Origin: Rhodospirillaceae bacterium
GTDB taxonomy: Bacteria > Pseudomonadota > Alphaproteobacteria > MPNO01 > UBA2964
Direction of reading: 5' to 3'
Assembly (NCBI GenBank): GCA_002724505.1
Contig: PBOV01000129.1
Location: forward strand, 1 to 12,761
DNA: 12,761 nt
A model generated the notes under the pieces. That model searched no databases. It had not been told where the DNA came from and saw only the letters and a program-made list of their open reading frames with translations. Below are positions 1-12,761 of this stretch, piece by piece; within the stretch, counting starts at the first letter, position 1, and each line of letters opens with the position of its first letter. Made by a program: the position numbers and the translations under genes.

Positions 1-290
1 CCTCTTGCAATTGGGTAAGCTAGTGATAGATCTGTGTGAATGTAACTACGGCTGAGAAACAGGAAATAGAAAACATGAATCAGTGAAGTTCCAAGGATGA
101 ACCACCAACCTTGTGTTTGTATGCCGCCAATGCTGATTAAAAAGACCGCTAGAGGTGCAAAAAGTACAACTTGTGCGATTAGAAGCAGCCAAGCGAACAC
201 TTCTTGGTTGTGGCTTCGCTTCAATAAGAGATTCCAAGCTGCATGAGCTAGCCCGGAAGAAAGAACAAGTGCTAAAGGTAGCCATGTCAT
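1..290 (-). CDS. EamA/DMT-family transporter, N-terminal part (cut by window edge)
   Basis: The ATG at 288-290 opens a frame of 96 complete codons that continues past the left edge. The product is strongly hydrophobic, with segments at about residues 2-18, 32-54 and 61-80. It contains the DLSLAYPIAR stretch (about residues 87-96), which is characteristic of the first EamA repeat of drug/metabolite transporters. Such inner-membrane proteins normally have about ten helices in two repeats, so roughly two thirds is missing. Substrates across the family are diverse and cannot be predicted here. No good Shine-Dalgarno site precedes the ATG, so the start is the simplest choice and not proven. It follows the interrupted purine permease on the same strand, but a hairpin terminator separates them, so it probably has its own promoter. 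Confidence 0.82.
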   Translation of the reverse strand, partial: MTWLPLALVLSSGLAHAAWNLLLKRSHNQEVFAWLLLIAQVVLFAPLAVFLISIGGIQTQGWWFILGTSLIHVFYFLFLSRSYIHTDLSLAYPIAR

Positions 291-343
291 TCTGAGAAGT
301 ATAACAGGAGAGTGTTTGTCTATTAATGTGGTTTATTTTGACA

Positions 344-378
344 AAAGGGTCAGGCTAATACTATTAGCCTGACCCTTT
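344..378 (-). terminator. Rho-independent terminator after the purine permease
   Basis: Bases 344-360 and 362-378 are a perfect 17-base inverted repeat around one central base (361). The arm core is AGGGTCAGGCTAATA, and in practice the innermost pairs would open to form the loop. Read on the minus strand, the stem is followed by TTTTGTCAAAATAAA, a short interrupted T-run. It starts 12 bases after the permease stop and lies between that gene and the transporter at 1-290, which suits transcription ending here. The A-run on its other side might give weak activity in the opposite direction. Confidence 0.8.
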
Positions 379-389
379 AATATTAGCAA

Positions 390-1700
390 TTAGATAGTGC
401 TAAGGTAGAAAAATACAACGGATGCGATTGCTATTCCTACTGAGGCAATGTTGAGGGCATCGAGCTTACCACTCGCAGCCTTAATGATTACATAGGCTAT
501 AAAGCCGATTGCTATTCCATAAGCAATGGAATAAGTCAGAGGCATCACTATCGCAGCTAGAATCGCTGGTGCGTACTCTGATATATCATCCCAATCTATA
601 TCCTTAATATTGCGGACGAAATAGGTCGCAATGAATATCAAAGCGGGCGCAGTTGCGAAGGCTGGAACGGACTGTGCCAGTGGTGCAAAGAATAGACAGG
701 CTGCGAATAGTACCGCTACGGTCACCGCTGTTAAGCCAGTACGACCACCTTCTTTGATTCCTGCTCCACTCTCTATGTAAGAAGTGGTGCTAGATGTACC
801 TGCCAATGCACCTACTACAGTTGCAGAGGAGTCTGCAAGTAAAGCGCGGTCAATATCTTCGACCTCACCGTCATCCTTGATTCTGCCTGTGAGATTCGCA
901 ACAGAGGTCAATGTTCCTGCTGTATCTAGAAAATCAACGAATAAGAACGCAAAGGCTACACCGATAAAAGTGCCAAGCGTAATACTTTCCATAGAGAAAT
1001 CTAGTGCAAATGCATGCTCGGGATTTGGTACAGAATCAACTACTCCACTAAGCGAGGCTCCACCTGCACCAGATATCCACGCAATGACAGATACTGCCAA
1101 AATTCCGATAATGATTGATCCAGGTATATTACGGTTACTTAACACTGCCATGATAATGAAACCAAGGCCTGCTAGGAGAACTGGCGAGGATGCAATGTCA
1201 CCAAGTCCCACAAGAGTCGCCGGATTATCAACGATAATCCCTGCATTTTGAAATCCTATGATTGCTAGGAATAACCCTATACCTGCACCCACACCTAGCT
1301 TCATGCTTTTTGGAATGGAATTGATGATATACCTTCGAGCTGGCGTCACGGATAGCACTAAGAAAACAATACCTGAAACAAGTACTGCAGCTAAGGCTTG
1401 TTAGTAACTGAAGCCATCACCAAGAATTACGGTGTAAGTGAAATAAGCGTTAAGGCCCATACCTGGAGCTAACGCTACTGGCCAATTTGCCCAAAGCCCC
1501 ATTATCAATGTTCCAACCACAGCTGCAATGATTGTTGCCGTGAAAACTGGACCAAATGCCATTCCAGTTCCCTCGGTGCTAAGAGTGAGAGGGTTAACAA
1601 TCGTGATGTATGCCATGGTAAGAAAAGTGGCTAAACCAGCTAAGAGCTCGGTTCGGACAGATGTACCTGCCTGTTTCAAACGAAAAAGCTTCTCTAACAT
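390..1700 (-). pseudogene. NCS2-family (AzgA/PbuG-type) purine permease interrupted by an in-frame TAA
   Basis: The frame from ATG 1698-1700 to TAA 390-392 covers 437 codons, normal for guanine/hypoxanthine/adenine permeases of the AzgA/PbuG group. Family landmarks are clear: GTSVRTELLAG and TFLTMAYI near the N-terminus, then ALAPGMGLNAYFTYTV, then IINSIPKSMKLGVGAGIGLF, then DFLDTAGTLTSVA. A single TAA (1401-1403, codon 100) sits where relatives have Trp/Gln (GFSY-stop-QALAAV). Reading stays in frame on both sides, so this is a point nonsense change, most simply CAA to TAA, and no frameshift is involved. The fragments are residues 1-99 and an ORF that could restart at a GTG at 1356-1358, which lacks a convincing ribosome site. 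A good site (TAAGGAGAG) precedes the original ATG. The gene lies downstream of hpt, which fits purine uptake. It may be a recent pseudogene, a sequence error, or read through. Confidence 0.85.
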
Positions 1701-1878
1701 CGATCTCTCCTTACATTTTACCCATTACTAGGGTGATTACGCTGAACCTAACACATATGGAATAAGGATAAAAAGTGGGCAAGCACACTCTTATCAGGCA
1801 TTTTATGAATTTTCGAAAAATGCTTTTTTGATTTCAGTAAAATCTGTAATCATTAAAGTATTGTTTGTATTTCTGCAG

Positions 1879-2454
1879 CTAGGGATTTTGTGGTACTCCC
1901 TCTAAAGTATAGAGGGCACGTAATTCACGAAATTGCTGATTGTAATCAAGGCCATAGCCGACTAGGAATTGATCTGGAACTTCAAAGCCCACGTAGTCTA
2001 CAGTCACAGAGGTTAGTCTTCGTATAGGTTTATCTAATAGTGAGCATATCCGTACACTGGCTGCACCCTGTTCTTCGAAGTAATGTCGTATAAATTCGGC
2101 CGTAAATCCAGTGTCAACGATGTCCTCTACCACTAGGACATTTTTCCCCTTCACAGGGGTCCTAACCCCATGGTGCAGCCGAACCGATCCTGATGATTGT
2201 GTAGATTCATCGTAGCTAGACAAACGAATGAAATCTACTTGAATTGGTAATTCCATGCTTCGTATTAAGTCTGAAAGGAAGATGAAAGAGCCATTTAAAG
2301 CTCCAACTACTAAGAGCGGCTGGTCTTTATAGTCTGCGCTGATGAGGCTTGCAAGACGACTGACACATTCTTGGATTTGGGTTTCGCTAATGACGAGTTT
2401 TTGGGTAACCACAAATGACAGCCTAGTAAGTTGAAGGTCACTGAACCGTAGCAC
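1879..2454 (-). CDS. hpt: Hypoxanthine (guanine) phosphoribosyltransferase
   Basis: This cytoplasmic purine-salvage enzyme joins hypoxanthine or guanine to PRPP, giving IMP or GMP and pyrophosphate. The PRPP-binding signature VLVVEDIVDTGFT lies at residues 106-118 with both acidic residues present. The pyrophosphate loop is GALNGSFIF (51-59), the mobile loop SSYDEST (79-85), the purine-binding lysine region LLDKPIRR (139-146), and the C-terminal block YVGFEVPDQFLVGYGLD (154-170). The frame opens with GTG at 2452-2454, preceded by TAGGG six bases upstream, and gives 191 residues. A second GTG at 2410-2412 would give 177 residues, closer to the usual family length, so the start is uncertain. 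It is divergent from the phosphonate operon and sits upstream of the purine permease on the same strand with a 178-base gap. Confidence 0.93.
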   Translation of the reverse strand: MLRFSDLQLTRLSFVVTQKLVISETQIQECVSRLASLISADYKDQPLLVVGALNGSFIFLSDLIRSMELPIQVDFIRLSSYDESTQSSGSVRLHHGVRTPVKGKNVLVVEDIVDTGFTAEFIRHYFEEQGAASVRICSLLDKPIRRLTSVTVDYVGFEVPDQFLVGYGLDYNQQFRELRALYTLEGVPQNP

Positions 2455-2526
2455 CTGTTACCCTAGAGGTCAACGACTGCGCGAATTTTGTATTTTGACT
2501 AAGGTCATGATATTTCGTGCTTACCT

Positions 2527-2532
2527 TATAAT
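2527..2532 (+). promoter_or_regulatory. Candidate -10 box for the phosphonate operon
   Basis: A perfect TATAAT lies 51 bases upstream of the preferred ATG of the first phosphonate-operon gene, in the divergent gap between it and hpt. I see no good -35 hexamer at the standard distance. A TTGACT at 2495-2500 is about 26 bases away, too far. The assignment therefore rests on the -10 match and the position alone. Confidence 0.35.
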
Positions 2533-2583
2533 TGAGTAGTAGGTGTAGTGAAATTGAGAACTATGGATTCACAGAGGAGATCC

Positions 2584-3378
2584 ATGACAGAAATACCAAC
2601 GTCAGTCATTGTGATAGCTGCAGGCTTTGGTTCACGTTTAATGCCTCTTACTGAACACTTACCGAAGTGCATGTTACCAGTTCAATCTGTTCCGATTTTG
2701 CATAGAACGTTAGAGACATTTGACCAACTTGGGATCGAAGAAAAAACAGTAATTGGAGGCTATAAGGCAGAGAACTTAGCCATACCTACTGGCGTAAACT
2801 TACTTATTAATTCTGAATATCAATCAAATAACATTTTACATTCACTAGCTTATGCGCGGAATGAGTTTGTATATGGAACAGATACTATTGTTTGTTATTC
2901 GGACATTATTTTTCAGAAAGCTATCGCAGAGCAGTTATTGGAGAGTTCACTAGGTGACATAATTCTTGTAGTCGATAGAAAATGGCAAACTCGTTATGTT
3001 GACCGTGAGCTGCATTTGATCGCTGAGGCAGAGGCAGCTAATTTCGATGCCGAATTAAAGCTCCTACAAGTAGGGAAAACTTTGTTGACCTCAGATGCTA
3101 ACTCGAACGAATGGGGGGAATTCTTAGGCCTAGTGAAATTCACTAGCCGGGGAGCTCAGGCTTTTTGGGACATATTCGATAAAATTAACCAGCAGTTAGC
3201 ACCAGATGAGCCTTTTCAGGCTGCATCAGAATGGCAAAAATCTTATTTGACAGATTTATTTCAAGAGTTGATAGACAGAGGTATTAGTGTTCATTGCCTT
3301 TTAATTGATGGTGGCTGGGAAGAAATTGATAATCGAGAAGATTATGATTATGCTCAAGTGTTCAAATTTACTGACTGA
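2584..3378 (+). CDS. Stand-alone nucleotidyltransferase (LicC/sugar-phosphate cytidylyltransferase-like)
   Basis: This 264-residue protein has the GT-A-like fold of NTP_transferase enzymes, which couple an NTP to a phosphorylated substrate and release pyrophosphate. The nucleotide loop AAGFGSRLMPLTEHLPK (residues 12-28) is intact, with G16, R18 and K28. The metal-binding motif YSDI is at 105-108, SEYQSNNILHSL at about 77-88, and the C-terminal WEEIDNREDY retains the second conserved acid. The ATG at 2584 is preferred because AGAGGAGA lies just before it; the frame also extends upstream to ATG 2563 and GTG 2548. It is the first gene of the phosphonate operon and is followed after 44 bases by a CDP-alcohol transferase. 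A role in making a CMP-activated phosphonate or alcohol is inferred. CDP-inositol-type chemistry is an alternative, since that enzyme pair occurs fused in archaeal inositol-phosphate synthases. Confidence 0.82.
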   Translation: MTEIPTSVIVIAAGFGSRLMPLTEHLPKCMLPVQSVPILHRTLETFDQLGIEEKTVIGGYKAENLAIPTGVNLLINSEYQSNNILHSLAYARNEFVYGTDTIVCYSDIIFQKAIAEQLLESSLGDIILVVDRKWQTRYVDRELHLIAEAEAANFDAELKLLQVGKTLLTSDANSNEWGEFLGLVKFTSRGAQAFWDIFDKINQQLAPDEPFQAASEWQKSYLTDLFQELIDRGISVHCLLIDGGWEEIDNREDYDYAQVFKFTD

Positions 3379-3422
3379 ATATATTACGTCCAGAAATAAA
3401 ATGTGATTGAAAGGGATAAGGA

Positions 3423-4187
3423 GTGAGTGGAATAGGGTTCAAGGAAATTCGAGCCTCGATGAATGAGGCTAAGATAGCCTCCGACAGACGGAATTGGTGG
3501 ATATGGATTGCAATGCGTCCTGCCTCATACCCTCTGACGTGGTTAGCACTGCAACTGCGTCTTTCGCCCAATTTTGTTACATGCTTATATTTCCTAGCTA
3601 ATATCTTAGCTGCAATCTTTTTTATTACTGCTAGTTGCGAAGGGATGATTTACGGGTCGTTACTCTATAACTTGGGGCTTGTTCTTGATTGTGTAGATGG
3701 AAATATGGCTCGTACTACGGGGAAAACATCTCCTTTAGGATGGTTTCTAGACACTTTAGGGGCTGATTTTTTTTACGCTGTCTTTTTTATTCCTATTGGA
3801 ATTGGAGTAGCACTTTCAGATAATTACACCAGATTTTTCGAAAATCCTGTGTGGTTTGTTGCTTTAGGCTCTTCTACGACAGCATCAATTCTTTTGTACC
3901 GAATTTCCAGGATGCGGTTACATTTAGCGTCAGCACAAACAAACGCAACCGAGCCCAAAAAAGAAAAACCTGCGCTTTCGGCACCTTATGGGATTCGTAA
4001 GTTAGCTTTGGTAATTTACAGTAATGTTATGACGGCTGGAGGATGCATGCTCCCTCTAATTGTTATTGCATCTCTGTATCAATTGGTGGATGTATTTGTC
4101 ATTACTTACGGAATAGTATCCCCGTTAATTATTTCACTGGTGATTGGCTATCACACTATGCGTTTCGTAAAGAGATCTTCTAGATAG
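3423..4187 (+). CDS. CDP-alcohol phosphatidyltransferase family membrane enzyme
   Basis: The 254-residue product has about six membrane segments (roughly residues 50-70, 75-90, 116-132, 143-160, 195-222, 224-246). It carries the family signature DCVDGNMARTTGKTSPLGWFLD, with D89, D92, G93, A96, R97, G106 and D110. The family moves a phospho-alcohol from a CMP-linked donor to a membrane alcohol at the inner-membrane face. The fourth motif Asp, normally four residues after D110, is Ala here (A114), with an Asp one position later (D115). The proposed GTG start at 3423-3425 has AAAGGG upstream. ATG at 3462 is an alternative but has a poorer ribosome site. Lying between a nucleotidyltransferase gene and the PEP mutase gene, it probably transfers a CMP-activated phosphonate head group to a lipid or other polyol. 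That donor is inferred. Confidence 0.85.
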   Translation: MSGIGFKEIRASMNEAKIASDRRNWWIWIAMRPASYPLTWLALQLRLSPNFVTCLYFLANILAAIFFITASCEGMIYGSLLYNLGLVLDCVDGNMARTTGKTSPLGWFLDTLGADFFYAVFFIPIGIGVALSDNYTRFFENPVWFVALGSSTTASILLYRISRMRLHLASAQTNATEPKKEKPALSAPYGIRKLALVIYSNVMTAGGCMLPLIVIASLYQLVDVFVITYGIVSPLIISLVIGYHTMRFVKRSSR

Positions 4188-4203
4188 GACCGAATAGGGT
4201 GTG

Positions 4204-4220
4204 GGGGTTATAATAACCCC
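4204..4220 (+). promoter_or_regulatory. Palindrome containing a TATAAT, upstream of the PEP mutase gene
   Basis: GGGGTTA (4204-4210) and TAACCCC (4214-4220) form a perfect 7-base inverted repeat with a TAA centre, and TATAAT lies inside it at 4209-4214. It is in the 65-base gap before the PEP mutase gene. No T-run follows, so a terminator is unlikely. It could be an internal promoter with an overlapping operator, or an RNA hairpin in the leader. The best -35 candidate (AGGACC, 4186-4191) is poor. Confidence 0.4.
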
Positions 4221-4255
4221 AATGATCGAAACTTATATGTACGGACGATTCATTG

Positions 4256-5989
4256 ATGAATACCTATCGCGTTAATCCAACTGACAGATTATCTGCATTA
4301 AAAAGAACCTTGGATGCTCAAGGCTTCGTTCGAGCTCTGGAAGCCCATAGTGGTCTCAGTGGGATTGTTGCAGAAAGATCACAAATAAATGAATCTGATG
4401 GAAGCATTCGTGAATTTAATGCGATATGGGAAAGTAGTTTGACTGACTCAGCCACTAAAGGCTTGCCTGATGCCTCAATTGTCGGGACAGAATCTCGAAT
4501 ACATACAATCAACGAAATCTTACAAGTGACGACAAAGCCGTTGATTGTGGACGGGGATACTGGTGGAGAGATTGCCCAATTTGAATTCATGGTTAGTTCA
4601 CTAGAGCGTATAGGTGTTTCCGCAGTAATTATCGAAGATAAGGTTTTCCCTAAGAGAAACAGTCTTGATGCATCTGCCTCACAAGAGCTTGAAGATCCGG
4701 ACCGCTTTGCCGCCAAGATAAGTGCAGGGAAATCGGCTACAGTTTCTCCAGATTTTATGATTATCTCCCGACTGGAAAGCCTGATTGCAGGTCACGGCGT
4801 GGATGACGCACTTAGACGTGCGGAAATATATATAAACGCAGGAACAGATGGGATTATGATTCATTCGAATAAATCCCAGCCGGATGATTTGTTCAAATTT
4901 GTAGAGAAGTATGAAGCCTTGTGTAACAGGCTCGGAAAGCGTCCCGTCTTAGTCGGAGTGCCAACAACATACAATCAATACAAAGAGCCGGAACTTGCGT
5001 CGCTAGGTTTTAATATCGTTATTCATGCGAATCATCAGTTACGTGCATCGTATAAGGCGATGCAGGCAACTGCAAAGTTGATTTTAGAGTCCCAAAGCAG
5101 CGAAGAGGCTGATGCATCAATAGCCTCTGTTAAAGAAGTATTCTCTGTAGTGGGATTTGATCGCGTAGTATCGGATGATCGCGAACGATCCCAGATTCTT
5201 AATTTGCCAGTGATTATTCCTGCAGCGGGTAAAGACCCTGTTTTAACGGATGTTCCAAAATCTTTAATTAATATAGCTGGTAGGCCAGTTCTAGACTACC
5301 AACGAGAAATGATTGCAAAAACTGGCATAAAAAAAGTTACGGTTGTTCGTGGTCATAATGGCAAACAATTCGATGCCTATTACAAAAAAGACGACGACCT
5401 AGATTTTCTCGAAAATAAAAATTATGAAGAAAGTGGATCACTTTATTCTCTATTATTAGCCCGGGAACAAATGGTTCATGGCTTTGCATTTGTCTATTCT
5501 GATATTTTGTTCCGTTCAGATATTCTGCAAAGGTTAATTAATTCCGGTAAGGATATTGTCCTAGGGATAGACAATACTTATAGGCATCACAGGCATGAAA
5601 TAGACAAGAAACTCGATTTGGTTGTTACCCAGCAAGATATAGATTTTAGACTTAGGCGACTTGCTCCTCTTGAATTGACGCAACTTGTAAGCATTGGTAA
5701 GAACATCGATATAGAAAACGCAGATTCAGAATTTATTGGTATGGGGTATTTTTCTGCAAAAGGGGTCGAAGCACTTGTCAGGACCTACGAAGATTTCGCG
5801 GGTAAAGGAAAAGGCGTATTTCATGAATCAGCATCGTTTGAAATGGCTTCTATCACAGATATGATCCAAGAGCTTATAAGAAGGGGCTTCCCTGTCCATG
5901 GACTTGGAGTGACCCAAGGATGGATGGAAATCCACACAAATCAAGATATTGAAATTGCTGAGTCTGAACTGGCGGATTCATTAAATTAG
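4256..5989 (+). CDS. pepM: Phosphoenolpyruvate phosphomutase fused to a nucleotidyltransferase domain
   Basis: Residue numbers count from a TTG at 4253; the ATG at 4256 is the simpler start. Residues about 20-305 are PEP mutase, which rearranges PEP to phosphonopyruvate and forms the C-P bond. It has VDGDTGG (99-105, metal ligands), the diagnostic EDK-x5-NS motif (EDKVFPKRNS, 128-137), SRLESLIAGHG (172-182) and NAGTDGIMIHS (195-205). The EDK-x5-NS motif separates true mutases from related lyases. Residues about 318-575 form a nucleotidyltransferase domain with PKSL (335-338) and YSDI (415-418). Its nucleotide loop is shortened (AAGKDPVLTDVPK, no GxGxR), and the usual EID near the C-terminus reads EIH (559-561). 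Such fusions are known in phosphonate clusters, where the second domain is thought to activate the phosphonate with a nucleotide. The ribosome site is weak (GGA at 4243-4245). Confidence 0.93.
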   Translation: MNTYRVNPTDRLSALKRTLDAQGFVRALEAHSGLSGIVAERSQINESDGSIREFNAIWESSLTDSATKGLPDASIVGTESRIHTINEILQVTTKPLIVDGDTGGEIAQFEFMVSSLERIGVSAVIIEDKVFPKRNSLDASASQELEDPDRFAAKISAGKSATVSPDFMIISRLESLIAGHGVDDALRRAEIYINAGTDGIMIHSNKSQPDDLFKFVEKYEALCNRLGKRPVLVGVPTTYNQYKEPELASLGFNIVIHANHQLRASYKAMQATAKLILESQSSEEADASIASVKEVFSVVGFDRVVSDDRERSQILNLPVIIPAAGKDPVLTDVPKSLINIAGRPVLDYQREMIAKTGIKKVTVVRGHNGKQFDAYYKKDDDLDFLENKNYEESGSLYSLLLAREQMVHGFAFVYSDILFRSDILQRLINSGKDIVLGIDNTYRHHRHEIDKKLDLVVTQQDIDFRLRRLAPLELTQLVSIGKNIDIENADSEFIGMGYFSAKGVEALVRTYEDFAGKGKGVFHESASFEMASITDMIQELIRRGFPVHGLGVTQGWMEIHTNQDIEIAESELADSLN

Positions 5990-5999
5990 AGGAGTATCG

Positions 6000-6500
6000 T
6001 TGACTATTAGAGGCAATGATTTTTGGGAATTCTTGATATCACGAGATTACACGTTTTTTGCAGGCGTCCCTGATTCTACGTTTGGTCCTGCCTATAACGC
6101 GCTTACTTCTAATCCTTATTTGACCTACGTACCAGCAACAAGGGAAGACTCGGCAATTGGTGTTGCATCAGCGGCATATTTCTCTGGGGAAAAAGGCGGA
6201 GTGGTGATGCAAAACTCTGGTCTAGGGAATGTAATAAACCCTCTTACGTCATTCAGCCTTATGTATGAAATACCAGTTTTGCTGATTATTGGTTGGAGAG
6301 GATTCGGAGGCCCTGGGTCAGATGCTCCGGAGCACTGGATCATGGGAGAAAAAACACCTTCCTTCCTTGAACTTTTGGACATACCTTATGCAATTCTAGA
6401 TACAGAACTGCATGATGAAAAAATCGATCAACTTTTACAGTCAATTGAAATGCAGCAAAAACCGGGAGCCTTACTTGTCCCACCTGGGGTATTCAATTGA
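6000..6500 (+). CDS. Phosphonopyruvate decarboxylase, alpha subunit (TPP pyrimidine-binding domain)
   Basis: Phosphonopyruvate decarboxylase converts phosphonopyruvate to phosphonoacetaldehyde and CO2, pulling the unfavourable mutase reaction forward. This 166-residue protein corresponds to the N-terminal half of the usual single-chain enzyme. It has GVPDSTFGPAYNAL (22-35), TREDSAIG with the likely TPP-activating E49, the family block QNSGLGNVINPLTS (71-84), and the GWRG...GSDAPEHWIMGEKTP segment (98-120). The start is TTG at 6000, well placed behind AGAGGAG (5988-5994), and it begins 10 bases after the PEP mutase stop. Its stop codon overlaps the start of the beta subunit, which supports coupled translation of an alpha/beta enzyme. 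The paired sulfopyruvate decarboxylase subunits have the same layout, but the PEP mutase context favours the phosphonate substrate. Confidence 0.88.
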   Translation: MTIRGNDFWEFLISRDYTFFAGVPDSTFGPAYNALTSNPYLTYVPATREDSAIGVASAAYFSGEKGGVVMQNSGLGNVINPLTSFSLMYEIPVLLIIGWRGFGGPGSDAPEHWIMGEKTPSFLELLDIPYAILDTELHDEKIDQLLQSIEMQQKPGALLVPPGVFN

Positions 6501-7075
6501 ACTCTCGTTATGAAGCGATAAAGACTTTAATGTCCTGCGTAAAGGAAACAGATGCAGTTATAAGTACGACCGGGATGATATCCCGTGAGCTTTTTTATCA
6601 TCAGGACCGCTTGGGTAATTTTTATATGATTGGTTCTATGGGCTTGTTGTCGTCTTTTGGCTTAGGCCTTGCAAAATTACATCCGCTTAGGAAATTCTTT
6701 GTTTTAGATGGTGACGGTAGCGCACTGATGATCATGGGTACCATGGCGTTGATAGCTGCAGAGAAGCCGAAGAATTTTATTCATATTGTGCTCGATAACG
6801 AATCTTACGAATCAACAGGAGCACAGCCTACCATTAGTAGCTCTGTTCCGATTGGCGCAATTGCAGAGGCGTCAGGTTACGCAAGTACTGTAAGCGTCAA
6901 AAGCTGTACAGAGCTTGCGATCGAGCTAGAGCGATGCTTGGTCAAAGATGGCCCACATTGCATTCTGATAAAAGTAGGAATAGACCCAATACCGAATATT
7001 CCTCGCATAACTTATTCCCCCAATGAAATCAGGGACAGATTTCGATCTTTCCTGATGGAGAATACTGATGGATAG
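6497..7075 (+). CDS. Phosphonopyruvate decarboxylase, beta subunit (TPP pyrophosphate-binding domain)
   Basis: This 192-residue protein is the C-terminal half of phosphonopyruvate decarboxylase. The TPP/Mg motif is GDGSALMIMG (72-81) followed by LDNESYESTGAQPT (99-112), so GDG and DN have the expected spacing. GSMGL (46-50) and GLGLA precede it. The proposed TTG start (6497-6499) overlaps the alpha stop within TTGA, so the two subunits are probably made by translational coupling. The active site of TPP enzymes forms between PYR and PP domains, so this protein should need the alpha subunit. Its stop at 7073-7075 overlaps the start of the dehydrogenase gene by 8 bases. Confidence 0.88.
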   Translation: MNSRYEAIKTLMSCVKETDAVISTTGMISRELFYHQDRLGNFYMIGSMGLLSSFGLGLAKLHPLRKFFVLDGDGSALMIMGTMALIAAEKPKNFIHIVLDNESYESTGAQPTISSSVPIGAIAEASGYASTVSVKSCTELAIELERCLVKDGPHCILIKVGIDPIPNIPRITYSPNEIRDRFRSFLMENTDG

Positions 7076-8195
7076 CACGGGTGATCAGTACTGGTTGCCT
7101 ACTGAAATTATTTTCGGAGAAGGTGAATTAGATCACCTTGCAGAGCATGTACCAGAGTCCGCAAAAAAAATACTAGTAGTTAGCGGATCAAAGGCTCTTC
7201 GAAGCGAGGGCGTTCTTGATCGCCTTCAGGCTATGCTAGGGAATGAAAAGGTAGTTTTTTACGAAGGGGTGCCTTCTAATCCCGTACCCCAAGATATTGA
7301 TAATGCCGTTATTGCTGCGGTGAGTAATAAATGTGACGTGGTGATCGGAATTGGTGGTGGGAGCGTAATTGACGTAGCCAAGTGTGTTGCACTTCTAAGT
7401 ACACAACCTGCACCCGTGAAAGAATTCCTGCGAGGAGATCAGGCAATAAAAATCCCAGGCATACCATGTATTGCTGTTCCCTCTACTGCTGGTACCGGTT
7501 CAGAAGTCACAAAATGGTCAACAGTGTGGGATCCTATCGAGAAGAGGAAATACTCTCTCGATCATGATTTCCTTTATCCCAGGGTCGCCTTAGTTGACCC
7601 AACGCTCACGTATTCGATGCCAGGTTGGGTAACGGCAACCACCGGCTTGGATGCCCTTACCCAGGCGATAGAGGCCTACTGGTCTAAGGCTTCCCAACCT
7701 ACATCCGACATGTACGCTTTAGCAGCAGTCAGTAAAATTATAAATAATTTGAAACAGGCTTTTGATTCAGGTGATCCTTTTGCACGACGGGAGGTTGCAG
7801 CTGGAAGCCTTATGGCGGGCCAAGCTTTCTCCAACACCAGAACGACGATTTGCCATTCGCTTTCTTATCCCATGACTGCTAACTGGGGAATAGTTCATGG
7901 TCAGGCGGTTTCAATCACGCTGCCGGTTTTCCTTGAGGCCAATGCTGAAGCCCTCGCTGGGAAAATTGACCCTCTTCTAGAAGCACTGGAAGCACCCGGG
8001 CTAGGTGATGGAGTTTCCAGTATAAGGAATTTAATGGAAGAGACTGGGTTAAAAACCCGTCTTAATGACTTAGGCATTGATCAAGCTAGCTTAAGCAAGG
8101 TTATTGAAGAAGGGTATTATCCTGAACGTGCAGATAACAATCCAGTGATGTATACGCCGCAGGAAATACACTCGCTGCTTCAAGAAATTATTTAA
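7068..8195 (+). CDS. Iron-type (group III) alcohol dehydrogenase, probable phosphonoacetaldehyde reductase
   Basis: This 375-residue protein has full family length. The nucleotide-binding GIGGGSVIDVAK is at 94-105, PSTAGTGSE at 138-146, and the metal site uses D195, H263 and H277 in TGLDALTQAIEAY and ICHSLSYPMTANWGIVHG. The usual first metal His, four residues after the Asp, is Gln here (Q199). In phosphonate clusters a homologue reduces phosphonoacetaldehyde to 2-hydroxyethylphosphonate with NAD(P)H. That role is inferred from position directly after the decarboxylase genes and from the absence of an aminotransferase. ATG 7068 follows GGAG at 7057-7060. The stop overlaps the stop of the convergent gene on the other strand, with no terminator between them. 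Confidence 0.87.
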   Translation: MDSTGDQYWLPTEIIFGEGELDHLAEHVPESAKKILVVSGSKALRSEGVLDRLQAMLGNEKVVFYEGVPSNPVPQDIDNAVIAAVSNKCDVVIGIGGGSVIDVAKCVALLSTQPAPVKEFLRGDQAIKIPGIPCIAVPSTAGTGSEVTKWSTVWDPIEKRKYSLDHDFLYPRVALVDPTLTYSMPGWVTATTGLDALTQAIEAYWSKASQPTSDMYALAAVSKIINNLKQAFDSGDPFARREVAAGSLMAGQAFSNTRTTICHSLSYPMTANWGIVHGQAVSITLPVFLEANAEALAGKIDPLLEALEAPGLGDGVSSIRNLMEETGLKTRLNDLGIDQASLSKVIEEGYYPERADNNPVMYTPQEIHSLLQEII

Positions 8196-8950
8196 TCAAT
8201 GAGAGGTTTGTACTCGGGTATCCTTTTAAGCTTTTCTAAAATTTGCTCAGCCGTCATTTCATAAAGGTCGTACACTAACCGAAATTGATTAAGGATTGCC
8301 GACAGCCGCCTCATGTTTTGGTCTTTATCCTCAGGACAAAGATGATCGATGACTTCTAATATTGGTTTAGAGGTAATGAATCCATGCTCAGATAGGACAT
8401 GGTCACACCCATCTCCTAAGCTGTAGATGGGTGTGTTCAGGAGGCTTTTTCCTGCCGTACCTTCATGGTGAGCAAAAATCGTAAAGGCGCTAGAGATGAT
8501 ATTTCGGTACTCGTTTGGGAAACCTCTAGCATTTAAGTCATTTACAGAGTAATAGTAGTAGTGACGAGCATGAATTTTGGCAATATTCCGATTAGAGTTA
8601 GTAGCGGACAAGGTTTCTAAAAAAAAGCATGAGATCCAAGACCACAATTCTTCATTACCGCTAATTAATGCTCGATCATTCCTCCATAAACTTCCGAGCT
8701 TGCTGTACAGGTACTCAGCAATGGCATACTTCGTGTCGTATCTCCCACTGTTACTAATATCTATTGATCCTTCTTCACCCCAGGGAATTGATAAGTTGCG
8801 ATTGGTTAATAGATTATGCCAAGTGCTTTCGAATTTACCCCAGAAATCAGCATACGATCGACTGCTGTTAGTTTCTAGGCGCATTTCGTCTAATAATTCT
8901 CGGAATTGATCCTTACCCTCTGCCGTAAATGTACAAATTTTTGTATTCAT
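8192..8950 (-). CDS. Uncharacterised protein, last gene of the GHKL-ATPase operon
   Basis: I do not recognise this 252-residue protein with certainty. It appears mostly helical and soluble, with no signal peptide or membrane span. A Trp-rich helical centre, ELWSWISCFFLETLSA, is followed by an ARHYYYYS segment. From memory this resembles uncharacterised families such as DUF6339 near ATPase genes, but that is unchecked. The start is chosen at ATG 8948-8950, since AAGGAGGG lies seven bases upstream. An adjacent ATG at 8951-8953 is almost equally good. The frame stays open upstream to 9010, but those codons lie inside the preceding gene. The start touches the TGA of the upstream gene (ATGATGA), which implies translational coupling. 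The gene ends convergently against the phosphonate dehydrogenase gene. Confidence 0.75.
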   Translation of the reverse strand: MNTKICTFTAEGKDQFRELLDEMRLETNSSRSYADFWGKFESTWHNLLTNRNLSIPWGEEGSIDISNSGRYDTKYAIAEYLYSKLGSLWRNDRALISGNEELWSWISCFFLETLSATNSNRNIAKIHARHYYYYSVNDLNARGFPNEYRNIISSAFTIFAHHEGTAGKSLLNTPIYSLGDGCDHVLSEHGFITSKPILEVIDHLCPEDKDQNMRRLSAILNQFRLVYDLYEMTAEQILEKLKRIPEYKPLID

Positions 8951-9771
8951 CATGAACCCTCCTTGCTCTCCAGGCGTTTTAAATAAGGAGGCATTTTCGA
9001 TATCCCCCAAGATTTAACGACATCATCGATCCAGTTATCACGCTTACTGATCCAATCAGGATCTGTTTCTAATGCTTTATTTCTTTCTGGGAATTCAATT
9101 GTTCCGTTGTAGAACCCCTGCTTGCTGTAGATGAGTTGATACCATTGGTAAGTCCAATGTGGGAATTCCTCTTCCGACTCACCATCTGCTTCTGGGGGAC
9201 GATGGCAATGTTCAGTCATTTTTAGTAGTACCAGCTTTAAAATTATGGGTGATGTTGCTACGAAAAAAAAATCATCTTTTGCTAAATACCCTCTTTTTCG
9301 TTCAATATGAAGGATGGGCTTTTGCTCGTCATCAATGAAGGCCAAATCCCATATACGGCCTTCAAGGTTATCAACAAGCTCTACATCTAATATATCGGTT
9401 ACCATTGAGCTTTCTACAATTGATCCAGCAGTGAACTCGACTTCCTCTGCAAGCCCTAAAATTTTTTTATCGTTTGGGTTGATAACCTTAATATTGCATT
9501 TAAATCTATTTGTATGTTTGATACTTTCTAACGGCGCACCGTCGTCTGATGAGTATCCTGGGGAAGCGACAGTGCCCCAATTGAATCTGAGGAGGGAATT
9601 TTTTGCTTTTGTTGCCCAAACCTCAATAATAATCTCAGCATCATCTGGGAAATCGTAGGTCGCCAATTTTGGATAGGCGTTGAGAGTGCGTGCCTCACTC
9701 GGTTGGCTTATGTTGAGGTGTTCGCGTTCGATGCGTTTACGATTTGTGTAGTTATGGCTATTGATTGACAT
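8950..9771 (-). CDS. Uncharacterised protein partner of the GHKL ATPase
   Basis: This 273-residue soluble protein is not one I recognise. Residues about 45-130 look strand-rich. At 141-160 the run IWDLAFIDDEQKPILHIERK holds an Asp (D142) followed by hydrophobic-E-x-K (E157, K159), a layout like the core of PD-(D/E)XK nucleases. This is suggestive only. The C-terminal half is Trp/Tyr-rich with an acidic patch (EADGESEEE, 194-202). ATG 9769-9771 follows a strong GGGAGG site (minus strand, about 9778-9784). The gene starts two bases after the ATPase stop and its own TGA overlaps the next start, so it belongs to the same transcript. Interaction with the ATPase is inferred from this tight linkage. 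Confidence 0.78.
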   Translation of the reverse strand: MSINSHNYTNRKRIEREHLNISQPSEARTLNAYPKLATYDFPDDAEIIIEVWATKAKNSLLRFNWGTVASPGYSSDDGAPLESIKHTNRFKCNIKVINPNDKKILGLAEEVEFTAGSIVESSMVTDILDVELVDNLEGRIWDLAFIDDEQKPILHIERKRGYLAKDDFFFVATSPIILKLVLLKMTEHCHRPPEADGESEEEFPHWTYQWYQLIYSKQGFYNGTIEFPERNKALETDPDWISKRDNWIDDVVKSWGISKMPPYLKRLESKEGS

Positions 9772-9773
9772 AA

Positions 9774-11756
9774 TTAACCTCCCTCTACTAATGGAGAAGT
9801 GTCGACTACGATATCCCTTATTCCATCAAACCCAACGATGCTGAATCGTGGTTCTTCTCCAGTAATTTCGAATTCCACCCTATTACCATTCCGGCCTATT
9901 AACTCAATATCCTCGATCTCAGATATTGGAAGCAAATGCTGATCGCTAAAATCGAAATCCCTTTCATTCCACCTGTCTATGGATCTAGAGCTAGCAGTAT
10001 TGGCTAATTTGTAACCGACTCGAGTAACAAACCTCTTACCTTCTGGTGGAATTTTGTAGGTGTTTCCTAGATGAACCGTGAAACCATTTTCCATAGGTGA
10101 GGAAACAAAATAAGATGTAGCTTTTTGAGGACCTTTCCCTTTCGGCGTATTTACTGTTGTTCCAGGAGGAGTATCAGGGTCTGTATTTTTAATAAGGGTA
10201 GGTATTGAGAAAGCATCCTGAAAATGCGAAGATTTAAGCTTCTCAGCATGAATTTGATTAAGTTTACTGAGTAGCGCCTCACATATATCGAATACTGAAT
10301 AGAAAATTACTTGAGCCGATTCGGCATACTTTGTGATGCTGAATCTAGTGTTTGCTGTTCTCCTAGGCGGCAAGAAGCTTTCGTGCGATGCACCTTCAGT
10401 CTTGCGAAAGAGCTCTGAAAGCGCAGGGTTAGTTAGATGGACGTAGACAATACCACTACTACTAACTTTCAGTTGGTTGGGTTTTATTAATAGATCATTT
10501 CTTACAAATATGCGCCGGTCCTCGTCCTTTTCCGGATAAAGTCCCTCATTGTCTTTTTGGTAGGCAACCTTGAAGGAAACACGGGTGGGTGGCCCAGGTT
10601 TACCATTTTCATCTAGAATTTTCATCCAATACTTTGGCTCGAACACAAGAATGTCGCCTTGGTCGTAAGACTCTTGGAAATCTATGATTTCAGCCTCACT
10701 TAATCCCAGGTTGACCGGTTTTGATTTAAAATTCTTTATAACCGAGCTGTATTCTCGGCCTACATCAATTGCGATTGCACCTTCGCCAATAACTTTTTTG
10801 CAAATTTCTCCATAAGCACGATGTAAAGGATCGTCCACTTTTTCAAAGAAGTTTTGCGCATTGATTTCCTCATCATCCCTTGTCGAAGTAAGATCTATCA
10901 GCTTAAAAACAAGGGATCCGGAAATGATTGCATGAAACCATTCTGAAAAAATACATTTACGTATGTTTTCCATGGCGATTTCTTCTCGGAGATATGGCAC
11001 CACAAGAGAAAGACCATGCTCATTTGCTTTTCTCTGTAACTTGAAAGTATTCCTGAAAGATTTAATAAAATCTGCATCATCTGGATCGTTATTGGTAAGG
11101 CAAGTTACGAGGCTGTGGAACTTAGCATTCCCAGCTTTGTAAACAGTATCGTCAACAACATGAGGTGGTAAATTGGCTGTCCCCCACAATAGCTCATCAT
11201 GATCATCTTTGGGAGCTGAAGCCGCAAAGTATAAACTTGCTTCCGATAGCATATAAAAAGAAGACTTACCTACTCCATTGGAACCTCGTTGTGGGGAGGC
11301 TTTAGATTTAGAGCTTTGCCCACTAGCACGCCAAAATGCATTGAATGGGTTTGTTTTGTCGATCCTATCTTGACCCTTAAGAGTACGATCACCCACTAAT
11401 CCGATTGTCCCCGTATCTTCAATAGTTAAGAACCTTGAAGAGGTATTAGCCGTAATCTTTTCACTTATATTTTTATAATCCCCCAGAGCATTTAAATGCT
11501 CAGTCAGGCCATTAAAAAGCTGGATATCATTCCCGACAGGGTTGAAATCACCTATTGTAATAGTCACTAAGACTGGTTGATCAAGGTCAGGGTCCTGTGC
11601 ATCATCTGCATTCTGTCCAAATTCACGAACGACCGTGCGTTCATAGTCGTATTTTTCTGATGACCTGCTAGTGAATGCTTGTTCTTCCAGATGAGCGGTA
11701 TCCTCTAAAATTGATCCATTTTCAAGCTTATCAAAGGCCCATATATAAGTATTCAT
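9774..11756 (-). CDS. GHKL-fold (Hsp90/MORC/sacsin-like) ATPase
   Basis: The 660-residue protein opens with a Bergerat-fold ATP-binding domain. The N-box is REFGQNADDAQD (44-55, with E45 and N49), the G1 box is TIEDTGT (111-117), and the glycine lid is RGSNGVGKSSF (157-167). Residues about 200-440 probably include an S5-like transducer region, and the remainder is unassigned, with a strand-rich C-terminus. The ExxQNADDA form resembles sacsin- and MORC-type ATPases more than histidine kinases; no kinase H-box or membrane span is seen. Dimerisation driven by ATP binding is typical of the fold. ATG 11754-11756 has AAGGAGG upstream and overlaps the zinc-ribbon gene stop by one base (TAATG). It is the largest product of the five-gene operon and probably its motor. 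Its specific role is unknown; defence or DNA processing is a guess from the composition. Confidence 0.85.
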   Translation of the reverse strand: MNTYIWAFDKLENGSILEDTAHLEEQAFTSRSSEKYDYERTVVREFGQNADDAQDPDLDQPVLVTITIGDFNPVGNDIQLFNGLTEHLNALGDYKNISEKITANTSSRFLTIEDTGTIGLVGDRTLKGQDRIDKTNPFNAFWRASGQSSKSKASPQRGSNGVGKSSFYMLSEASLYFAASAPKDDHDELLWGTANLPPHVVDDTVYKAGNAKFHSLVTCLTNNDPDDADFIKSFRNTFKLQRKANEHGLSLVVPYLREEIAMENIRKCIFSEWFHAIISGSLVFKLIDLTSTRDDEEINAQNFFEKVDDPLHRAYGEICKKVIGEGAIAIDVGREYSSVIKNFKSKPVNLGLSEAEIIDFQESYDQGDILVFEPKYWMKILDENGKPGPPTRVSFKVAYQKDNEGLYPEKDEDRRIFVRNDLLIKPNQLKVSSSGIVYVHLTNPALSELFRKTEGASHESFLPPRRTANTRFSITKYAESAQVIFYSVFDICEALLSKLNQIHAEKLKSSHFQDAFSIPTLIKNTDPDTPPGTTVNTPKGKGPQKATSYFVSSPMENGFTVHLGNTYKIPPEGKRFVTRVGYKLANTASSRSIDRWNERDFDFSDQHLLPISEIEDIELIGRNGNRVEFEITGEEPRFSIVGFDGIRDIVVDTSPLVEGG

Positions 11757-11950
11757 TACGCTGCCTCCTTAACGCTTTGTGCTATGCCAGTGAAATCGTG
11801 CCCCAGATGGTATGCATGGCATGTAGGGCATCTGTAAATCGAAATCCGTATCCCATTTATAGGCTTAGACCCTGTTCGGGAGAGTGTGTTTTTAGCAGTC
11901 TTACGCGAAAAATACCGGCGCTTTCCTACGCAATGGTTTTTTAGAATCAT
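11756..11950 (-). CDS. Small zinc-ribbon-like protein
   Basis: This basic 64-residue protein has a Cys near the N-terminus (C7 in NHCVGKRRYFSRKTA) and a CPTCHAYHLGH cluster at about 41-51, giving three Cys and several His. The pattern of C...KRRY.S...A then YRCPxCxxxHL is seen in many small phage- and plasmid-type zinc-binding proteins, so metal binding is likely though not shown. It may bind nucleic acid or act as an adaptor for the ATPase. A near-perfect AAGGAGGT precedes ATG 11948-11950, and the stop overlaps the ATPase start. That linkage and the ribosome site argue that it is a real gene despite its size. Confidence 0.78.
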   Translation of the reverse strand: MILKNHCVGKRRYFSRKTAKNTLSRTGSKPINGIRISIYRCPTCHAYHLGHDFTGIAQSVKEAA

Positions 11951-11964
11951 AAAACCTCCTTGGC

Positions 11965-12489
11965 TTATCGGGTTTTCCTTGTTCGTAGTCTCAATTTTTT
12001 CTTCACAGGGGCTTTATATTCCTTGATTTGGAATTGCTGTTTCCATTCAACTAGGCTGTAACACCCATAAGATGGACGGAAAAACCTACCCTCAGGATCA
12101 CGGCTCATGACGCCAATGAGGTTTGCTTTGCTCCCCGCAGCTGGGATTCGAAGATTTTCCTGAGTCACCCAATCGTGTAATGTCCCAATTGCGACACCAT
12201 TGCGTGGGTTAATTTCATTGTTTGCATGCTTGCGCTTAAACAGGTCAACGAGTTTTTCAGTGAACTCCCCGGGATGACGAAGGGATTGAACCTCCATTGG
12301 CCGGGAATCAGGTTTGTAGTAGCCCACGATATCTTGGAGCACTTTCTCTTCTTCACGGTATTTTCTTAAATCGCCTTCTAGTTCATTAATGCTCTTCTCC
12401 AACTCAGATATCTCTGAACGCACATCGCAAAGCCTGGATTCTAGATTTTCAATATTTACAGTTATCATAGACAGTGACAAATTCCTCAT
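11965..12489 (-). CDS. Coiled-coil plus winged-helix-like protein, first gene of the GHKL operon
   Basis: The 174-residue product has a charged heptad-like coiled coil at about residues 10-55. A globular domain of about 75-152 follows: FTEKLVDLFKRKHANNEIN, then TLHDWVTQENLRIP, ANLIGVMSRDPEGRF, and a closing GCYSLVEW. This order of helices ending in a G-x-YSL strand is like winged-helix domains of the HARE-HTH type found with restriction and conflict systems; the match is by eye. The C-terminal tail (about 158-174) is very basic, which suits nucleic-acid binding. ATG 12487-12489 lacks a ribosome site and ATG 12466-12468 (167 residues) is an alternative, so a leaderless transcript is possible. 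It could be the DNA sensor, regulator or scaffold for the downstream proteins. Confidence 0.75.
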   Translation of the reverse strand: MRNLSLSMITVNIENLESRLCDVRSEISELEKSINELEGDLRKYREEEKVLQDIVGYYKPDSRPMEVQSLRHPGEFTEKLVDLFKRKHANNEINPRNGVAIGTLHDWVTQENLRIPAAGSKANLIGVMSRDPEGRFFRPSYGCYSLVEWKQQFQIKEYKAPVKKKLRLRTRKTR

Positions 12490-12690
12490 GTGTAATTTAT
12501 ATGATCAGGATATACTAAGATTGATGTATTGTAAACACTTTATAATTACGTATAACATAAATTTTTTAACGTATTCTTATGCGTAACCTTGAATTATATG
12601 GCTGGGTGACCACTTGCTTATTTGCAAGAAACGTGCACAATTGCTTTTAGAGTCAAGATCTAAATTTTGCGAGGGAATGGGAGTAAAGAA
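12490..12690. promoter_or_regulatory. AT-rich divergent intergenic region with repeated ACGTAT-like hexamers
   Basis: This gap separates the minus-strand GHKL operon from a plus-strand amidohydrolase gene, so both promoters should lie here. ACGTAT occurs at 12548-12553 and 12569-12574, 21 bases apart, and ATGCGT (its inverted near-match) at 12579-12584. The last two form an inverted pair with a 4-base spacer. This looks like an operator array but is not proven. A short CTTGC/GCAAG hairpin lies at 12613-12628. I see no RNA gene. Confidence 0.35.
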
Positions 12691-12761
12691 ATGATTATTG
12701 ATATGCATGGACATCTGAACGCACCCTCTGAGCTTTATGCTTATAAGGCTGGCTTACTCTC
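12691..12761 (+). CDS. Amidohydrolase-family protein, N-terminus only (cut by window edge)
   Basis: ATG 12691 follows GGGAG (12679-12683) at good spacing and opens a frame of 23 complete codons to the right edge. It begins MIIDMHGHLNAPSELYAYKA. The D-x-HGH pattern right after a short strand is typical of the amidohydrolase superfamily, where the two His bind the catalytic metal, and the APxxLYAYKA continuation is like decarboxylase/hydratase-type amidohydrolase-2 proteins. The fragment is too short to name the substrate. It is divergent from the GHKL operon and probably belongs to ordinary metabolism flanking the accessory block. Confidence 0.7.
   Translation, partial: MIIDMHGHLNAPSELYAYKAGLL

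What the first reader, a model, noticed from the sequence alone, without database searches (positions are those of the whole stretch)
8192..12489. Five-gene GHKL ATPase operon: candidate undescribed conflict or DNA-processing system
A winged-helix/coiled-coil protein, a zinc ribbon, a 660-residue sacsin/MORC-like GHKL ATPase and two unknown proteins form a gapless, translationally coupled set. GHKL ATPases with small DNA-binding and unknown partners recur in prokaryotic defence loci, but I cannot match this gene set to a named system. No methylase, helicase or obvious nuclease is present, which makes the effector an open question.
Basis: partly seen in the sequence, partly recalled or inferred. 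Interest (0 to 1): 0.75.

Follow-up and report, generated by a model that had tools for sequence, protein, structure and literature searches.

The report
Mobile GHKL-ATPase three-protein conflict module
A marine SAR202 bacterium carries a precisely inserted block of five genes built around a three-protein ATPase machine that recurs across bacteria and archaea, often beside DNA-methylating enzymes, and is probably an untested defence against foreign DNA, including one protein whose predicted shape matched no solved structure searched.

Summary
On the minus strand at 12489-8192 lie five tightly packed genes: E (coiled coil), Zn (one CxxC), A (GHKL ATPase), B and C. They are the whole content of a 4,424-bp insertion (8190-12613); a sister SAR202 genome has the same flanks with 6 bp there. 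A-B-C, in that order, is found in 77 of 84 aligned loci, from many bacterial phyla and two archaeal lineages. Of 84 loci other than the window, 33 also hold a 5-methylcytosine methylase (about 0.2 expected) and 26 a Vsr-like gene. The window has neither, and E and Zn have no relative in those loci. No Pfam family fits B or C. B is modelled as an Fn3-like sandwich plus helices; C is modelled at pLDDT 96 without PDB match. A matches PADLOC's phage-defence candidate PDC-M33A; profile comparison links B to PDC-M33-type partners and, weakly, C to DUF6339/PDC-M33C. Best reading: a mobile, methylase-less, divergent branch of a GHKL, restriction-linked conflict system acting as an ATP-gated DNA clamp (mechanism inferred, untested). 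The contig belongs to SAR202, not to the MAG it is filed under.

The parts
8190..12613 (.). Inserted block of 4,424 bp holding the five genes; sister SAR202 genome G655 (locus L154) has the same gene order on both sides and 6 bp here
   Evidence: flanks align to L154 up to window 8189 and from 12614 on; no repeat of 8 bp or more shared by the outer 80 bp of its two ends
11965..12489 (-). E: 174-aa protein, N-terminal coiled coil, C-terminal part possibly winged helix (not confirmed); accessory, seen only in this lineage
11756..11950 (-). Zn: 64-aa protein with one CxxC, like small phage proteins of unknown function; accessory, seen only in this lineage
   Evidence: PHROG 15216 E 7.8e-7; PHROG 9124 E 1.3e-6
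9774..11756 (-). A: 660-aa GHKL ATPase, core gene; intact ATP site, R419, ExxxH (E454/H458)
   Evidence: (PDC-M33A E 1.4e-9)
8950..9771 (-). B: 273-aa core partner; Fn3/Ig-like sandwich followed by helices (from the model of a homologue at 24% identity)
8192..8953 (-). C: 253-aa core partner; compact mostly helical fold without PDB match (from the model of a homologue at 20% identity); possible remote relative of DUF6339
12490..12613 (-). Upstream non-coding stretch inside the insertion, probable promoter region (one 9-of-12 sigma-70-like site at 12535-12507; such sites are not above chance in the region scanned)

Best explanation
The block is a mobile conflict cassette whose core is a three-protein GHKL machine (A-B-C), a divergent, methylase-less branch of a family that elsewhere is often wired to 5-methylcytosine methylases and Vsr-like nucleases. 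Most likely mechanism: A dimerises on ATP like MutL or MORC and closes as a clamp on DNA; B, an Fn3-like sandwich with a helical tail, and C, a compact helical protein, are obligate subunits that couple ATP-driven closure to recognition and action; E and Zn act as local DNA-recognition or regulatory add-ons in this lineage. The loaded clamp stops foreign DNA, by recruiting a nuclease where one is linked and, in the window, by C itself or by holding the DNA. Shown by computation: gene set, insertion or loss as one unit, conserved triad, intact ATP site, methylase/Vsr linkage in relatives, remote relation of A and B (and weakly C) to PDC-M33/DUF6339 triads. Inferred: anti-phage or anti-plasmid role (about 0.6), clamp mechanism (about 0.4), what E, Zn and C do.
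For: A, B and C lie on one strand in the order A-B-C in 73 of 73 loci where all three are called, 77 of 84 with open-ended frames. 5mC methylase in 33, Vsr-like gene in 26, both in 25 of 84 other loci, against about 0.23 methylases expected in the 1.02 Mb held. Patchy spread: A in 9 of 393 genomes of the host's class, the host included; PDC-M33A in 0 of 14 well-known control genomes. Sister genome without the block. Window A hits PDC-M33A at 1.4e-9, relatives L008 and L009 at 9.1e-33 and 6.3e-23; the DUF6339 triad in L110 is PDC-M33A/B/C at 5.3e-60, 2.1e-21, 4.9e-11. Local hhalign: B with its DUF6339-operon counterpart E 1.8e-5 and 3.4e-6; C with DUF6339 E 0.0018 and 0.0013; the other pairs tested 0.063 or worse; best of 60 (C) and 55 (B) column shuffles 0.083.
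Against: 46 of 84 non-window loci show no methylase, Vsr or small ORF D in the held flanks, and by eye several tight clades of these sit among ordinary genes (output partly cut, and 54), which would also suit a non-defence role. The SAR202 assembly G483 has no PF00145 methylase (it may be incomplete). PADLOC scans of neighbours (86 of 204 and 85 of 191 scanned) gave no rate and are inconclusive. B and C of the window miss PDC-M33B and PDC-M33C. The C-DUF6339 link is weak (hhalign probability 15 and 19%). The window's place in the tree is unsure (long branch). I found no experiment on the family.
Confidence: 0.6

Rival explanations
1. Nuclease-free silencing: the A-B-C complex topologically entraps and compacts incoming DNA, as eukaryotic MORC proteins do, so no effector nuclease is needed.
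For: No nuclease family at E up to 0.1 in Pfam for any of 73 B and 68 C members; intact GHKL site; many A-B-C loci have no linked Vsr-like gene in the held flanks. That C. elegans MORC-1 topologically entraps and condenses DNA is stated in the start of the abstract of PMC8277788, seen in a search listing.
Against: C has no known fold, so a new nuclease cannot be excluded; relatives are often linked to Vsr-like nucleases.
Confidence: 0.2
2. A housekeeping DNA-maintenance complex (MutL-like), occasionally adopted by methylase loci.
For: Solitary A-B-C modules in several tight clades, by eye among ordinary genes.
Against: Patchy occurrence (9 of 393 genomes of the host's class; PDC-M33A in 0 of 14 control genomes) and exact gain or loss as a cassette.
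Confidence: 0.2
3. The window holds the restriction half of a restriction-modification system that lost its methylase, now inactive or depending on an unlinked one.
For: Relatives with linked methylase, including one whose gene overlaps the start of A in Chloroflexota locus L101; 22 of 48 genomes, 47 of them without a linked methylase, hold a PF00145 gene.
Against: The five genes are open and differ in one codon between two SAR202 assemblies; ribosome sites before four of five; 0 PF00145 in G483, where an active restriction half would be expected to harm the host (inference; assembly may be incomplete).
Confidence: 0.12

Closest known systems
PADLOC phage-defence candidate PDC-M33 (A, B, C), the GHKL - B - DUF6339 triad
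   Same: Same three-gene order; A detected by PDC-M33A; B, and weakly C, related by profile comparison; both kinds often linked to a 5mC methylase (29 of 32 DUF6339 loci)
   Different: Window B and C miss the PADLOC models; no methylase; extra E and Zn. No paper in the held library names PDC-M33, so I take it as untested
paraMORC families in restriction-modification loci (Iyer, Abhiman, Aravind 2008, PMC2292703; parts 1-2 of 4 read, plus passages)
   Same: GHKL ATPase; in relatives restriction-linked neighbours (DCM, Vsr); the ExxxH motif given there for paraMORC2 is present in A and kept in 81-82 of 84 rows
[not shown]
VcSduA, GHKL-Shedu (PMC12137116, passages read)
   Same: GHKL ATPase in phage defence
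   Different: Single protein with a DUF4263 nuclease; no DUF4263 hit in the window proteins

Membership tests
PDC-M33 (PADLOC) | A matches PDC-M33A | tested here: met
   E 1.4e-9 over residues 42-286 (the tool gives no curated cut-off)
PDC-M33 (PADLOC) | B matches PDC-M33B | tested here: not met
   no hit at E up to 1; remote relation only by hhalign
PDC-M33 (PADLOC) | C matches PDC-M33C | tested here: not met
   no hit at E up to 1; weak remote relation to DUF6339 by hhalign
paraMORC2 (Iyer 2008) | GHKL ATP-binding motifs | tested here: met
   each residue kept in 81-84 of 84 rows
[quoted passage not shown]
   ExxxH present (E454, H458), but the S5 domain was not modelled, so its place there is unproven
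paraMORC2 (Iyer 2008) | restriction-modification neighbourhood | tested here: not met
   none in the window or the L012 flanks; methylase in 33 of 84 relatives
Prokaryotic MORC proper | GhXhhpXXRhl motif in the S5 domain | not tested
   S5 domain not aligned
Type II restriction-modification system | 5mC methylase linked to the cassette | tested here: not met
   none in the window or L012; also 0 PF00145 in assembly G483, which may be incomplete; adenine methylases elsewhere in the genome not searched
[not shown]
   no Mza hit for the five proteins; neighbours are phosphonate and housekeeping genes
Shedu with GHKL | DUF4263 nuclease domain | tested here: not met
   no DUF4263 or SduA hit

The most novel reading that the evidence does not exclude
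A-B-C is a widespread, self-sufficient immune machine without a known nuclease: a MORC-like ATP-gated clamp with an Fn3-type coupling subunit and a new-fold subunit C that silences or destroys invading DNA; methylases, Vsr, D, or E and Zn are exchangeable targeting modules plugged into it, and the SAR202 block shows one such set as a single mobile cassette.
Probability: 0.25. Interest if true: 0.85.

Novelty: new variant of a known kind. Interest (0 to 1): 0.62.

Why it matters
It turns a vague 'GHKL operon' into a defined, testable unit: three genes, fixed order, found in bacteria and archaea, two of them in no Pfam family and one with a confident model that resembles no solved structure found by the searches used. 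It links a defence candidate (PDC-M33), paraMORC-like proteins and methylase loci, and gives a natural pair of occupied and empty site. If active, it would show what prokaryotic MORC-like ATPases do, a question raised in 2008.

Tried and rejected
Shedu-, Mza- and type II-style membership was tested and not met (Membership tests). DUF6339 as C itself: none of 68 C members matches it in Pfam at E up to 0.1; only profile comparison links them. The first hhalign run was in global mode through my option: C-DUF6339 5.7e-5, B-counterpart 6.7e-5, controls 0.039-0.84; the local values are the ones I rely on. C against BFVD: no match. PDB sequence-profile searches: none for B or C at E up to 5, best 0.037 for A. 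E in plasmids: no match. Window A in plasmids and phages: none; relatives 3 and 1 remote hits. DNA of one relative (L060) in E. coli: no DNA-level match, which says nothing about remote proteins. The Caulobacter Vsr paper (PMC12907096, outline and passages) showed no link to A-B-C in what I saw. No paper in the held library holds 'PDC-M33' or 'DUF6339'; other searches. PADLOC neighbour scans are inconclusive: the output counts members per family, not neighbours with a hit. I scanned 86 of 204 neighbours of loci without methylase, Vsr and D, and 85 of 191 of loci with methylase or D (the size cap left 130 and 150; of these I dropped 44 and 65 by hand, mostly as likely spurious or farther frames). 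Hits included REase_II in up to 4 of 85, DRT9, PDC-S families and MzaC in the second set; Cas3-like helicases, methylases, SduA, MzaC and RmrA, at most 3 members each, in the first.
Full report
Anatomy. Five genes run on the minus strand from 12489 to 8192: E (174 aa), Zn (64 aa), A (660 aa), B (273 aa), C (253 aa). A and Zn overlap by one base, B and C by four, A and B lie 2 bp and Zn and E 14 bp apart; all but E have a clear ribosome-binding site. The genes to the left run the other way and look like phosphonate biosynthesis genes (PEP mutase fused to a nucleotidyltransferase, phosphonopyruvate-decarboxylase-like pair, iron alcohol dehydrogenase, CDP-alcohol transferase; pathway recalled).

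Whose DNA it is. The window is a whole 12.8-kb contig of a MAG (G000). Bases 1777-12761 are 99% identical to a 203-kb contig of SAR202 cluster bacterium OSU_TB62 (L012, which ends there). The DNA polymerase III gene next to it in L012 scores 946-1,284 bits (41-51% identity) in four other Chloroflexota genomes, but only 736 bits (39%) against G000's own copy, much as against G000's same-genus relative G002 (744 bits, 39%) and Parerythrobacter (691 bits, 40%). I infer that the contig is SAR202 (Chloroflexota) and mis-binned in an alphaproteobacterial MAG; the class is inferred, since a 'same class' genome carries a Parerythrobacter-like A. Statements about G000 (for example no PF00145) therefore do not bear on the cassette; those about G483, the SAR202 assembly (no PF00145), do.

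The insertion. A close SAR202 relative (G655, locus L154; flanking proteins 71-96% identical to L012) has FPGS, dnaE, MGMT, amidohydrolase, alcohol dehydrogenase, the decarboxylase pair and PEP mutase in the same order without the five genes. The flanks match up to window 8189 and from 12614; between them the window has 4,424 bp and L154 has 6 bp. The five genes therefore came (or went) as one unit. None of the five looks like an integrase, and the outer 80 bp of the two ends share no repeat of 8 bp or more. G655's handle number lies within those first given, and it is not among the nine genomes matching A there (inference).

The conserved unit. One genome-contig scan with a five-sequence alignment of A gave 109 confirmed relatives, 80 kept. 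With four loci from whole-genome searches, one viral contig and the window, and without L012 and L038 (copies), 84 loci were aligned. Profiles of A, B and C found all three in 73; in 73 of 73 they share the strand and the order A-B-C. Of the other 11, four gain C when frames may run off the contig (L022, L028, L032, L075), two stop at a contig end within B (L015) or soon after most of it (L034), L039 has B but no C found in the 674 bases left, L070 has A but no B or C found in the 1,785 bases after it, L031 and L058 have a shortened A without B or C, and L059 is broken and ends. So 77 of 84. Six further loci from the class of G483 all carry A-B-C. Hosts include Pseudomonadota, Planctomycetota, Chloroflexota, Nitrospirota, Actinomycetota, Acidobacteriota, Bacteroidota and archaea (Archaeoglobales, Brockarchaeota). 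The family is patchy: A is found in 9 of 393 genomes of the class of G483, itself included, in 1 other of 96 relatives and 3 others of 397 genomes sampled around G000, and PDC-M33A in 0 of 14 control genomes.

Partners. Of 84 loci other than the window and L012 (L038 in), 33 hold a 5mC methylase, 26 a Vsr-like gene, 25 both, and 23 a small basic ORF (D) just before A; 19 of these 23 also have the methylase. From 45 PF00145 rows in 200.7 Mb of 48 genomes about 0.23 would be expected in the 1.02 Mb of loci; 47 of those 48 were picked for lacking a linked methylase, so the true background may be somewhat higher. 46 loci show none of the three, some because the contig ends; among loci with at least 15 kb held, 17 of 30 have a methylase. 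Methylase-linked and other loci are intermixed on the tree but clustered (16 changes against about 26 in shuffles). In Chloroflexota locus L101 the methylase gene overlaps the start of A. E and Zn have relatives in none of these loci nor in the six further ones, only in L012.

Function. Patchy spread, gain or loss as a cassette, and the methylase/Vsr linkage of relatives point to conflict with foreign DNA. A MutL/MORC-like clamp is the natural reading for A (established knowledge of GHKL proteins; not shown here); which subunit harms the invader is not known. In methylase-linked loci Vsr-like nucleases are candidates; in the window none is present, so either C acts through an unknown site or the clamp itself blocks DNA. 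A housekeeping role cannot be excluded, because many modules without linked methylase sit, by eye, among ordinary genes (output partly cut), and the PADLOC neighbour scan was inconclusive.

Literature seen: PMC2292703 (parts 1-2 of 4 and passages), PMC9523054 (section 11 and passages), PMC12137116 and PMC8011034 (passages), PMC12907096 (outline and passages), PMC8277788 (start of abstract in a listing). None of these describes B or C in what I read; searches for 'PDC-M33' and 'DUF6339' found no paper in the held library, which lacks most subscription journals and bioRxiv.

Noticed in passing
window 1-12761: The contig is SAR202 (Chloroflexota) but is filed in a MAG whose own DNA polymerase gene groups by score with alphaproteobacterial genomes; probable mis-binning.
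   Followed up: yes
window 2548-8195: Phosphonate-type operon in SAR202: nucleotidyltransferase, CDP-alcohol phosphatidyltransferase, PEP mutase fused to a nucleotidyltransferase, decarboxylase-like TPP enzyme split in two genes, iron alcohol dehydrogenase; could make phosphonolipids.
   Followed up: partly
window 7068-8195: The alcohol dehydrogenase differs from L012 in 46 codons (34 silent, 12 not) while the neighbouring five genes together differ in one codon: a sharp local jump in divergence.
   Followed up: no
window 390-1700: A purine/uracil-type permease seems to lie in two ORFs (390-1358, Pfam PF00860, and 1401-1700), possibly a frameshift.
   Followed up: no
L102, L105, L041, L046: Chloroflexota loci with two tandem C genes.
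   Followed up: no
L075:4734-7013: C continues in the same frame into a long stretch that looks like leucine-rich repeats.
   Followed up: no
L112, L126, L132: DUF6339 and a 5mC methylase in one reading frame, apparent fusion, in 3 of 32 loci.
   Followed up: partly
23 of 84 loci, just before A (e.g. L053, L054): Small basic ORF D (about 73 aa) upstream of A, in 19 of 23 cases with a linked methylase; function unknown.
   Followed up: partly
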